A stretch of 47,931 nucleotides of DNA from NCBI GenBank assembly GCA_009695045.1, contig SIBS01000004.1, positions 1-47,931 on the forward strand, written 5' to 3'. Below the pieces are notes generated by a model, which saw nothing but the letters and a program-made list of their open reading frames with translations, searched no databases and was not told the DNA's origin. The stretch comes from Candidatus Levyibacteriota bacterium (GTDB lineage: Bacteria; Patescibacteriota; Microgenomatia; Levybacterales; UBA12049). Made by a program: the position numbers and the translations under genes. Position 1 is the stretch's first letter; each line of letters begins with the position of its first letter. Of this stretch, positions 44,690-47,931 are shown in pieces.

Positions 44690-44974
44690 ATGAGTTTACT
44701 GGAAAAGTTTAAAAAATACCTACAGGATCAGACTACGCCTGCATCTAGGGCTACAATAAAAAATTACTTAGCAGATGTTGGTCAATTTATAAAATGGTGC
44801 GAGGATAAATTTGGCTATTTTTCTCCAAAAGACATAAATTATGTAACTATTTCAACATATAAAAAAATTAAAAACGATTCTGGTATTTCATTAAGCTCAA
44901 TTGATAGGCATATTTCTTCGCTTCGTAAATTTCATACTTTTCTAAGTATAAGTAGTCATGATATTGAATCTAAT
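44690..44974 (+). other. Core-binding (SAM-like) domain 1 of the giant protein
   Basis: LLEKFKKYLQDQTTPASRATIKNYLADVGQFIKWCEDK...SGISLSSIDRHISSLRKFHTFLSI matches the XerC/XerD N-terminal domain pattern. Confidence 0.8.
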
Positions 44975-47931
44975 CCATTTGTAGATCCTATTTCTAATTT
45001 TAACAATATTGTTCCTACGGATAAATGGAGTATTAAGAAATTTAAAGATTATCTTTATGCATGTAATTCATCGCCTCTTACTATAAAGAACTATATCGCT
45101 GATGTGCGTCAATTTACTAATTGGATAGAATCACATATGGCAAAAAATGGTCAGGGAATATGGACAGAAAACCTTCTAGAAAAAATTGATAACTCACTTC
45201 TCCAAAAATATAAAGACAACTTAATTAATTCTAATATCTCTGCGCTATCTATAAATCGAAAACTTTCATCTAATCGTAAGTATACTGGATGGGCACAAGA
45301 TAAGGGCCTAATGCATTTTCAATCTGAAATTATAAATATAAAAAAGCCAACATCTCAATATAGTATTCCAAAAAATAATAATGATCTATCTTCTAATGTA
45401 AATATGATAAAGACTAATAATTCTTTGTATTCAAATAATGATAATAGATTAAAAATAAAATATTCAATACTACCTCCAATTCGACTTTTACAAAAAATTT
45501 GGAATGGAATACTTTGGATACTTGATGAAATTTTTACAGGTCATATTATTGATATTATAGAAAATATTGATTATTTGCTTTGGAAAAGTAATGGGAAAAG
45601 AATTTTTGTTAACACAAAAAAGATTAGCAAAAATATTATTAATAATATTTCTTCAAACAAAAAATTAACAATTGCAAATATATCAAAATATGACTATTCA
45701 CATCATGAAATATCTACTACATCTATGCCATTACATTTTAAAATACTTCATCATCTACGAAATACTCGACCAAATTGGTATCATAAGTATCATTCTTACT
45801 CAATCTCCCACTATCTCCATTTTGCAATTCTTGTGATCGTAATGTCTGCATTAGGTTTTGGATTTTATCAAAAATTTATACAAGAAACTGGCACCAAAAG
45901 CATTGCTTTAGCAGGGCCAATATCGCCAAACAGGGTGCTTTCTTTTCAAGGAAGATTAACTGACAGTAATGATATTCCAATCACATCACAAAAAAAACTT
46001 AGATTTAGCATTTACAGCAATGAGACTTCAACCGCTGCTGCAGCCATTGAGCCATTTTTATGGCAGGAGTTACGAATTGCCACTCCTGATGCTGATGGAA
46101 TTTTTAGCGTACTTCTAGGATCTAATCCTACAGGTGGCCCTACTGGACTATGTGGTGATTTTCCAGCAACTACTCCATGTGGAATAAAACAATCAATATT
46201 TGGGGACCATGATTTATTATGGCTAGGCGTAAGCGTTGAAAATGATTCAGAGCTTACTCCTCGTCAACAAATTGCAACAGTTGCATTTGCAACAAATTCA
46301 GAACTTCTTCAAGGTCTACCCCCCACAATAGATACTGCATGGATTAGCAATAATACAAATACAAACGCTATACTTGCATTGAATAGTTCTGGCACTCTTT
46401 CAATCGGTGGAGCAAGCGGATCTAAGACTACATTTCAAGCAAACGGAAAGTATACGCTTACGGGACGGGTTTTATCAATTAACACAACTGCTGGAACAGA
46501 TACGAATATTGAAATTACTCCAGATGGTATTGGAAAGATAGATGTTCAAAAACCATTACAAAATAGCACAAGTAGTAACAATATACTCTCATCCATTGGA
46601 TCCGTGGAAATTGATGATACTTTTTCCGTACTTGCTACATCATCCGGAATACCAGCAGCAACAATAAATCAAAATGGATCAGGAGATATATTTACTGCAT
46701 CATCTTCTGGAAATACAAAATTTACAATTACAAATTCTGGTAATGTTGGAATAGGAAGCGTAATGCCTGGATATAAATTAGATGTTACCGGAGACATCAA
46801 CGTATCAGGTGGATTTAAGGTAAATGGCGTAAGCTTTACTGGTAGCTCTCAATGGACTACTAATTTAAATAATAGTATTTATTTCAATACTGGAAATGTT
46901 GGGATTGGAACTACTGCTCCGATAGGATTACTTCATGTTTCTGGAAGCGTTGGGGGCAATTCAATTGGAATAATAAATAATGAAGGTAGCGTTGGAGATA
47001 TATTTACTGCATCATCTTCCGGAAATACAAAATTTACAATTACAAATTTTGGAAATGTTGGCATTGGAAGTATTACGCCAAATGCAAAACTTCAGATTGT
47101 TGGATCTGATACATCAAATTCTATCTTTGCTGCAAACATTGGTGGGTCAACTGGTACAGGACTCATTGTTACAAATTCAGGAAATGTCGGGATTGGAAGC
47201 GTAACGCCTGGATATAAATTAGATGTTACCGGAGACATCAACGTATCAGGTGGATTTAAGGTAAATGGGTCAAGTTTTGGTAATCAATGGATCACAAGCG
47301 TAAATACTATATCAAACAGTAATTCTGGAAATGTTGGCATTGGAAGTATTACGCCAAATGCAAAACTTCAGATTTTTGGAGATGATGCACTCAATACCAG
47401 CTTTGCTGCTAATATTGGCGGAAATAATGCCCTAGAAACAGGACTCGTTGTTACAAATTTAAACAATGTAGGGATTGGAACAACTGTGCCATTTTTTAAA
47501 TTAGATATTGATGGAGATATTGGTCCAAGCTCAGATAATGCATATAATATTGGGTCATCTTCTCTGCGATGGGGTACTATTTATGCAAATTCTGTAAATA
47601 TACCTGCTAGCAATGGTTCTTTTGGACCATGGGTTATTAATGGTAATCTATTATCTACTACCAATCCATCATTTGATCTTTTAATTGGAGGTAGTGCCAG
47701 TAACTCTGCTTCATTTCAAATATTTGCAGGGACTGATATTGGTATAAATGCTAGAGCTGGTGATGCTTCTACTTCTGGATCACTTGTATTTAATGGAGCA
47801 GCATCACCTACTATTGATATATTAAATAATCAAAGATTAGATTTTCAAACTTCTAGTGGTGGAGATACTGGTCTTACTGCTAGATTGTCTATTCTTGGGA
47901 ATGGAAATGTTGGGATAGGGACTACTGCTCC
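44690..47931 (+). CDS. giant membrane-spanning tail-fibre-like protein with two N-terminal tyrosine-recombinase core-binding-like domains (3' truncated by window)
   Basis: Hand-translated 1080 codons with no stop; AAAAGGAGG ribosome-binding site before ATG 44690; missed by the ORF track because it runs off the window. Confidence 0.93.
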   Translation, partial: MSLLEKFKKYLQDQTTPASRATIKNYLADVGQFIKWCEDKFGYFSPKDINYVTISTYKKIKNDSGISLSSIDRHISSLRKFHTFLSISSHDIESNPFVDPISNFNNIVPTDKWSIKKFKDYLYACNSSPLTIKNYIADVRQFTNWIESHMAKNGQGIWTENLLEKIDNSLLQKYKDNLINSNISALSINRKLSSNRKYTGWAQDKGLMHFQSEIINIKKPTSQYSIPKNNNDLSSNVNMIKTNNSLYSNNDNRLKIKYSILPPIRLLQKIWNGILWILDEIFTGHIIDIIENIDYLLWKSNGKRIFVNTKKISKNIINNISSNKKLTIANISKYDYSHHEISTTSMPLHFKILHHLRNTRPNWYHKYHSYSISHYLHFAILVIVMSALGFGFYQKFIQETGTKSIALAGPISPNRVLSFQGRLTDSNDIPITSQKKLRFSIYSNETSTAAAAIEPFLWQELRIATPDADGIFSVLLGSNPTGGPTGLCGDFPATTPCGIKQSIFGDHDLLWLGVSVENDSELTPRQQIATVAFATNSELLQGLPPTIDTAWISNNTNTNAILALNSSGTLSIGGASGSKTTFQANGKYTLTGRVLSINTTAGTDTNIEITPDGIGKIDVQKPLQNSTSSNNILSSIGSVEIDDTFSVLATSSGIPAATINQNGSGDIFTASSSGNTKFTITNSGNVGIGSVMPGYKLDVTGDINVSGGFKVNGVSFTGSSQWTTNLNNSIYFNTGNVGIGTTAPIGLLHVSGSVGGNSIGIINNEGSVGDIFTASSSGNTKFTITNFGNVGIGSITPNAKLQIVGSDTSNSIFAANIGGSTGTGLIVTNSGNVGIGSVTPGYKLDVTGDINVSGGFKVNGSSFGNQWITSVNTISNSNSGNVGIGSITPNAKLQIFGDDALNTSFAANIGGNNALETGLVVTNLNNVGIGTTVPFFKLDIDGDIGPSSDNAYNIGSSSLRWGTIYANSVNIPASNGSFGPWVINGNLLSTTNPSFDLLIGGSASNSASFQIFAGTDIGINARAGDASTSGSLVFNGAASPTIDILNNQRLDFQTSSGGDTGLTARLSILGNGNVGIGTTA
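45026..45310 (+). other. Core-binding (SAM-like) domain 2 of the giant protein
   Basis: SIKKFKDYLYACNSSPLTIKNYIADVRQFTNWIES...LLQKYKDNLINSNISALSINRKLSSNRKYTGWAQDKGL. Confidence 0.8.
45812..45874 (+). other. Transmembrane helix of the giant protein
   Basis: YLHFAILVIVMSALGFGFYQK, about aa 375-395. Confidence 0.8.
46682..47374 (+). repeat. Intragenic shuffled fibre-repeat cassettes
   Basis: 62-nt identical pair 46766-46827/47207-47268; 48-nt identical pair 47051-47098/47327-47374; 55-nt near-identical pair 46682-46736/46994-47048. Confidence 0.9.

What the first reader, a model, noticed from the sequence alone, without database searches (positions are those of the whole stretch)
44690..47931. 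Membrane-spanning fibre protein with two recombinase-type DNA-binding domains at its cytoplasmic end
Translating the unannotated 3' end gives an ORF of at least 1080 codons. Order: two tandem XerC/D-like core-binding domains (aa about 1-95 and 113-207), a basic Asn/Lys-rich linker, one TM helix (aa about 375-395), an 'LSFQGRLTDSNDIPI...' domain, then GNVGIGTTxP-type tail-fibre repeats. No recombinase catalytic Arg/His/Tyr domain appears before the TM. The core-binding fold normally clamps DNA in tyrosine recombinases. Here it seems to be repurposed inside the cell while a fibre projects outward, implying a protein that could tie DNA (chromosome, incoming DNA or a specific site) or a protein partner to a surface appendage. 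The sequence facts are direct; the function is inference.
Basis: partly seen in the sequence, partly recalled or inferred. Interest (0 to 1): 0.9.

Follow-up and report, generated by a model that had tools for sequence, protein, structure and literature searches.

The report
Surface fibre with recombinase-type DNA-binding foot
Microgenomates bacteria make a long surface fibre that crosses the cell membrane and ends, inside the cell, in DNA-gripping-type domains borrowed from chromosome recombinases, so the fibre may be tied to DNA inside the cell; we found no description of such a combination.

Summary
The ORF at 44690-47929 encodes two tandem Xer-type core-binding (CB) domains, a basic linker, one TM helix, an LSFQGRLTD domain and fibre repeats, with no catalytic domain. 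It is open at 3' only because the contig ends there. It is not a fusion artefact: the same architecture recurs, without internal stops, in dozens of genomes of the class Microgenomatia, with fibres up to >6,490 aa. It was not found in sampled genomes of the phylum outside that class, nor in phages.

AlphaFold2 and Foldseek confirm two four-helix CB folds. Residues that Xer CB domains conserve on helices B and D are kept. The charge pattern supports an N-in/C-out topology.

(1) The gene lies in a conserved locus: comEC-comEA-leuS on one side, WxLIP-type surface proteins next to it. (2) In ten families it is split, always between the two helical hairpins of CB2: a small protein carries CB1 plus half of CB2, and the fibre carries the other half. 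Both pieces are under purifying selection.

Best reading: a host-contact fibre with a DNA-binding cytoplasmic foot. The DNA binding is inferred, not shown.

The parts
44690..47929 (+). fibre gene, 1080 codons, 3' end missing (contig end)
44690..44983 (+). CB1, Xer-type core-binding domain, aa 1-98
45026..45319 (+). CB2, Xer-type core-binding domain, aa 113-210
45320..45751 (+). linker aa 211-354, partly disordered in the model (helix 262-300)
45752..45811 (+). conserved basic juxtamembrane stretch, aa 355-374
45812..45874 (+). TM helix, aa 375-395, N-in by positive-inside rule
45926..46099 (+). LSFQGRLTD domain, aa 413-470
46100..47929 (+). extracellular fibre region with GNVGIGTTxP-type repeats, cut by contig end
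42625..43536 (-). Ig-like (Big_6) secreted protein with C-terminal TM, conserved neighbour
41556..42518 (+). WxLIP-like protein 2 with C-terminal TM (weak Pfam match)
40048..41541 (+). large secreted protein, conserved neighbour
38958..39989 (+). WxLIP protein 1
37730..38464 (+). small secreted protein, conserved neighbour
37072..37704 (+). small membrane protein, conserved neighbour, no family match
34129..36780 (-). leuS, conserved flank
33420..34058 (-). comEA (SLBB + HhH)
32068..33381 (-). comEC, Competence domain part
31227..32093 (-). comEC, metallo-beta-lactamase part as a separate ORF

Best explanation
It is a single-pass, N-in/C-out trans-envelope fibre of the bacterial class Microgenomatia, not a recombinase. 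Shown by computation: one to three catalytic-domain-free Xer core-binding modules, then a TM helix, then a long fibre, conserved across the class in a surface-protein locus; in many families the foot is divided, a separate small protein ending in the first hairpin of a CB domain whose second hairpin starts the fibre protein. Inferred: the outer part contacts host cells. The CB modules bind double-stranded DNA, reinforced by two modules per chain and probably three chains per fibre, so that the fibre is anchored to the nucleoid and not only to the membrane. In split families, loading of the small protein would complete CB2 and switch the anchor on. Confidence in the architecture and family is about 0.95; the number given is for the DNA-anchor mechanism.
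For: Two CB folds, top PDB hits all tyrosine recombinases. Xer-conserved residues kept in 148 family CBs: Thr, Tyr and Asp of helix B; Arg, Lys/Arg, Ser-Ser and Arg/Lys of helix D; net charge +5 per CB against +3 in Xer. In XerH this bundle enters the major groove (PMC5241119). N-in topology. Fused CBs dN/dS 0.09-0.12, split ORF1 0.06, half-CB 0.16. CB number varies (1, 2, 2.5) while TM and outer domain stay, as for a binding module. Chaperone, carbohydrate-binding and dockerin domains outside; WxLIP-type neighbours.
Against: No DNA-binding assay. The conserved positions could be kept partly for folding. In L095/L097 the second CB has lost the motif. In recombinases the CB clamps DNA together with the catalytic domain, so alone it may bind weakly (own knowledge). 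No DNA target was found. If the [LFI][AG] motif behind the TM is a signal-peptidase site (fits 42 of 61), the fibre would be cut from its foot.
Confidence: 0.45

Rival explanations
1. The CB modules have become a protein-protein foot (fibre oligomerisation, attachment to a cytoplasmic scaffold, docking of the separate half-CB protein) and no longer bind DNA.
For: The split at one point in ten families shows the fold can serve as a docking joint. Degenerate CB2 in L095/L097 keeps helices but loses the motif. Number of CBs varies.
Against: Surface polar/basic residues shared with Xer are among the most conserved of all, also in the split pieces.
Confidence: 0.3
2. It is a membrane-bound one-component regulator of the ToxR kind: the outer fibre senses contact, the cytoplasmic CBs act on promoters.
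For: DNA-binding-type domain - TM - outer domain order; a 33-bp palindrome unique in the genome lies 594 bp upstream of the gene.
Against: The outer part is 1,000-6,500 aa, far larger than a sensor; the palindrome is not conserved in relatives and only slightly exceeds shuffles; a separately encoded half of the DNA-binding domain has no precedent in such regulators (own knowledge).
Confidence: 0.1
3. It is an accessory of DNA uptake: it grips transforming DNA near ComEA/ComEC.
For: comEA lies within 0.25-10.6 kb of the fibre gene in 20 loci, including the window.
Against: leuS and other genes usually lie between, on the other strand; synteny in small genomes can persist without function. ComEC passes single strands (own knowledge) while CB domains of recombinases bind duplex DNA. 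In many other loci the fetched stretch shows no com gene next to the fibre, though flanks are short.
Confidence: 0.1
4. Artefact: an integrase fragment joined to a fibre gene by assembly error or frameshift.
For: The gene touches a contig end; databases call the pieces 'site-specific integrase, partial'.
Against: Independent genomes of dozens of genera, several in one contig, show the same order of domains without stops under purifying selection.
Confidence: 0.01

Closest known systems
Xer tyrosine recombinases (XerC TIGR02224, XerD TIGR02225, archaeal XerA)
   Same: N-terminal CB domain, sequence and fold
   Different: No catalytic Arg/His/Tyr domain; CB in tandem; TM and giant outer fibre follow
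Phage tail-fibre-like surface proteins with Peptidase_S74 / Peptidase_G2 chaperones
   Same: GNVGIGTTxP repeats; S74 or G2 domain in some complete relatives
   Different: Chromosomal, in a conserved cellular locus; no phage match to the N-terminal part; S74 lies mid-protein and is followed by another conserved end module; has TM and cytoplasmic CBs
WxL/WxLIP (DUF916-DUF3324) surface gene clusters of Gram-positives
   Same: WxLIP proteins paired with small and large secreted proteins (PMC10599100)
   Different: The paired proteins lack the dual WxL motif; WxL clusters are not described with a CB-fibre
ToxR/CadC-type membrane-bound regulators (own knowledge)
   Same: Cytoplasmic DNA-binding-type domain, one TM, outer domain in one chain
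   Different: There a winged helix and a small sensor; here recombinase CB domains and a fibre of 1,000-6,500 aa

Membership tests
Tyrosine recombinase (Xer) | CB (SAM-like) domain | tested here: met
Tyrosine recombinase (Xer) | catalytic domain with Arg-His-Arg-Tyr | tested here: not met
   No match to catalytic profile or to the C-terminal two thirds of XerC/XerD models
Tail-fibre-like protein with intramolecular chaperone | S74 or G2 chaperone domain | tested here: inconclusive
   Window gene truncated; S74 in L045 (E=6e-13), sub-threshold G2 in L029 (E=9e-5)
Tail-fibre-like protein with intramolecular chaperone | trimeric beta-structured shaft | not tested
   only repeat sequence seen
WxL cluster (neighbours) | WxLIP (DUF916) proteins | tested here: met
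   PF06030 E=3e-8 above cut-off for 38958-39989; weak for 41556-42518
WxL cluster (neighbours) | dual WxL motif in the partner proteins | tested here: not met
   0 of 64 partners have two WxL motifs
ToxR-like membrane regulator | winged-helix cytoplasmic DNA-binding domain | tested here: not met
   cytoplasmic domains are CB folds
DNA-binding membrane anchor (functional class) | binds DNA | not testable with these tools
   only residue conservation and charge

The most novel reading that the evidence does not exclude
The fibre's cytoplasmic foot is a DNA clamp without recombinase chemistry. In ten families it is completed in trans: a separate small protein carries CB1 plus the first hairpin of CB2, the membrane fibre carries the second hairpin, and their pairing assembles a DNA-binding domain that ties a cell-surface fibre to the chromosome. 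This would be a switchable link between outside contact and the nucleoid.
Probability: 0.3. Interest if true: 0.9.

Novelty: categorically new. Interest (0 to 1): 0.77.

Why it matters
Microgenomatia are a large class of small, mostly uncultured bacteria whose way of attaching to hosts is unknown. A class-wide fibre that runs from the cytoplasm, where it carries DNA-binding-type domains, to the outside is a concrete candidate for that contact. If the foot binds DNA, it is a physical link between a surface appendage and the nucleoid that I know of in no other bacterium. It also shows a recombinase domain leaving its enzyme for another job, and a DNA-binding domain cut in two repeatedly at one point. 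Practically, databases name these genes 'site-specific integrase, partial', which hides the family. 'Categorically new' refers to the architecture; the mechanism is unproven.

Tried and rejected
Frameshift/assembly join: rejected. Programmed frameshifting or readthrough as the general explanation of the split genes: rejected, because gaps run from -59 to +382 nt (6.7 kb in L132) in all three frames, and two loci (L095, L136) have a similar 53-55-aa ORF in the gap. Introns at the split: no Rfam match in nine loci, no unusual folding of four gaps. Signal-peptidase cleavage behind the TM: left open, since -3 residues fit in only 42 of 61. Phage origin: no match in phage records. Upstream palindrome as conserved operator: not conserved. 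Folding the split halves together with AlphaFold2: not run, because MAFFT placed the half-CB of ORF2 on the wrong hairpin. Literature searches for such a protein returned nothing relevant.

Full report
What is there. The last gene of the window (44690-47929, +) has a ribosome-binding-site-like AAGGAGG before its ATG and runs 1080 codons to the contig end; the window is the whole contig. It reads: CB1 (aa 1-98), CB2 (aa 113-210), a linker, a conserved basic motif ahead of the membrane, one TM helix (aa 375-395), an LSFQGRLTD domain (aa 413-470), then fibre repeats. NCBIfam matches are to the first third of the XerC/XerD models only; no catalytic part follows. AlphaFold2 models both CBs mostly at pLDDT above 90, and the best PDB matches are tyrosine recombinases (XerA, Tn1549 integrase, integron integrase, Cre, lambda Int), at about 1.8-3 A over 85-100 residues for several of them. 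Foldseek E-values are weak (0.03-1), as expected for small all-helical domains, but the high-probability hits are tyrosine recombinases or their isolated N-terminal domains.

It is a real family. Searching aa 1-363 in 60 related genomes found matches in 36, many of them in open frames of 1,000-3,900 aa with the same order of domains. Complete proteins end in a conserved module ('SLIYITPxxxT...FTVGI...FNWxIVN'). Named relatives with the architecture are Levy-, Woese-, Shapiro-, Roizman- and Beckwithbacteria. A class-wide search and domain mapping of 40 further loci showed fused two-CB forms, one-CB forms, an ORF with two and a half CBs (L143) and a fibre of at least 6,490 aa. In a sample of 246 genomes of the phylum, the only match at E<=1e-15 outside the class was an ORF of recombinase size (292 aa). 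Databases label the pieces 'site-specific integrase, partial'.

Does the foot still look like a DNA-binder? In 148 family CBs against 14 Xer CBs, the Xer-conserved positions persist: Thr (86/100%), Tyr (98/100%), Asp (97/92%) on helix B; Arg (97/92%), Lys/Arg, Ser-Ser and Arg/Lys on helix D. The family adds its own Lys-Asn ('TIKNY') and Trp. Median net charge is +5 per CB against +3 in Xer. In XerH this helical bundle enters the major groove and supplies most base-specific contacts (PMC5241119). DNA binding is therefore the natural inference; it was not tested. A counter-sign is the L095/L097 group, where CB2 keeps its helices but loses the motif.

Topology. Net charge in the 30 residues before the TM is +5 (median) against +2 after it, and 56 of 64 members follow the positive-inside rule, so the CBs should face the cytoplasm. 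A conserved hydrophobic-Ala/Gly motif follows the TM; it would pass as a signal-peptidase site in 42 of 61 members but not in the rest, so cleavage of the fibre from its foot is open.

The split. In GTDB families coded f7, f10, f17, f18, f19, f23, f24, f27, f30 and f35 the gene is two ORFs, cut each time between helices B and C of CB2, that is between the two hairpins that make up a CB domain (described for XerA in PMC3646895). Fused and split forms change at least six times on the best tree; strongly supported branches force at least two changes. Frames and gaps vary, two loci (L095, L136) have a similar 53-55-aa ORF in the gap, no intron family was found, and gap RNA is not unusually folded. 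Selection is purifying on both pieces (dN/dS 0.06 for ORF1, 0.16 for the half-CB, one close pair). The simplest reading is two proteins that pair to complete CB2; this is inference.

The locus. Around the gene, order is conserved: comEC (as two ORFs)-comEA-leuS on one strand, then a small membrane protein, small secreted protein, WxLIP, often a large secreted protein and second WxLIP, an Ig-like protein, the fibre, then a TPR membrane protein, often followed by an M23/LysM peptidase. WxLIP proteins are proposed to bind WxL proteins on peptidoglycan and host cells (PMC10599100), although the partners here lack the dual WxL motif. One relative's fibre carries carbohydrate-binding and dockerin domains (L137). 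This favours a host-contact role. comEA is within 11 kb in 20 loci; function or mere synteny is undecided.

Verdict. Observation confirmed, interpretation partly supported. The protein is not a recombinase (catalytic domain tested, absent). Architecture and family are secure; the DNA anchor is the most likely mechanism at about 0.45, with a protein-docking foot as main rival.

Noticed in passing
L026, L052, L092, L094, L096, L098, L099, L101, L108, L109, L111, L114, L116, L117, L122, L123, L124, L127, L130, L140: The fibre gene is split in two ORFs at the same structural point, between the two hairpins of CB2; overlapping or separated by up to 382 nt, in all frames.
   Followed up: yes
L095 6433-6594 and L136 4763-4949: A small ORF of 53-55 aa with a shared W.DP...G.PY pattern lies between the two pieces of the split gene; L097 has a partly similar one.
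   Followed up: partly
window 31227-33381 (-); L037 16757-18855: ComEC is encoded as two separate, slightly overlapping ORFs (Competence part and metallo-beta-lactamase part) in the window and in relatives.
   Followed up: partly
window 44064-44096: Near-perfect 33-bp palindrome GTCCAAATCAATAT-5-ATATTAATTTGGAC, unique in the genome, between the Ig-like gene and the fibre gene; slightly above shuffles, not conserved in relatives.
   Followed up: partly
L094 5980, L109 5153, L123 10091(-): TATAAT-like boxes lie directly before the ATG of ORF1, suggesting leaderless transcripts.
   Followed up: no
L143 4587-5561: ORF with two CBs plus the first half of a third, followed by a second ORF: CB number is variable.
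   Followed up: no
L104 5989-6819: Amesbacteria protein with one CB, a proline-rich linker and a C-terminal TM, without a fibre.
   Followed up: no
L139 531-20000: Fibre ORF of at least 6,490 aa with one CB at the N-terminus, running off the fetched stretch.
   Followed up: no
L137 6274-10896: One-CB member whose outer part carries a carbohydrate-binding domain (CBM_4_9) and a type I dockerin.
   Followed up: no
PDB 9i5v chain 14: Entry chain named 'RaiA' matches the Xer CB profile best of all solved structures and looks like a mislabelled recombinase.
   Followed up: no
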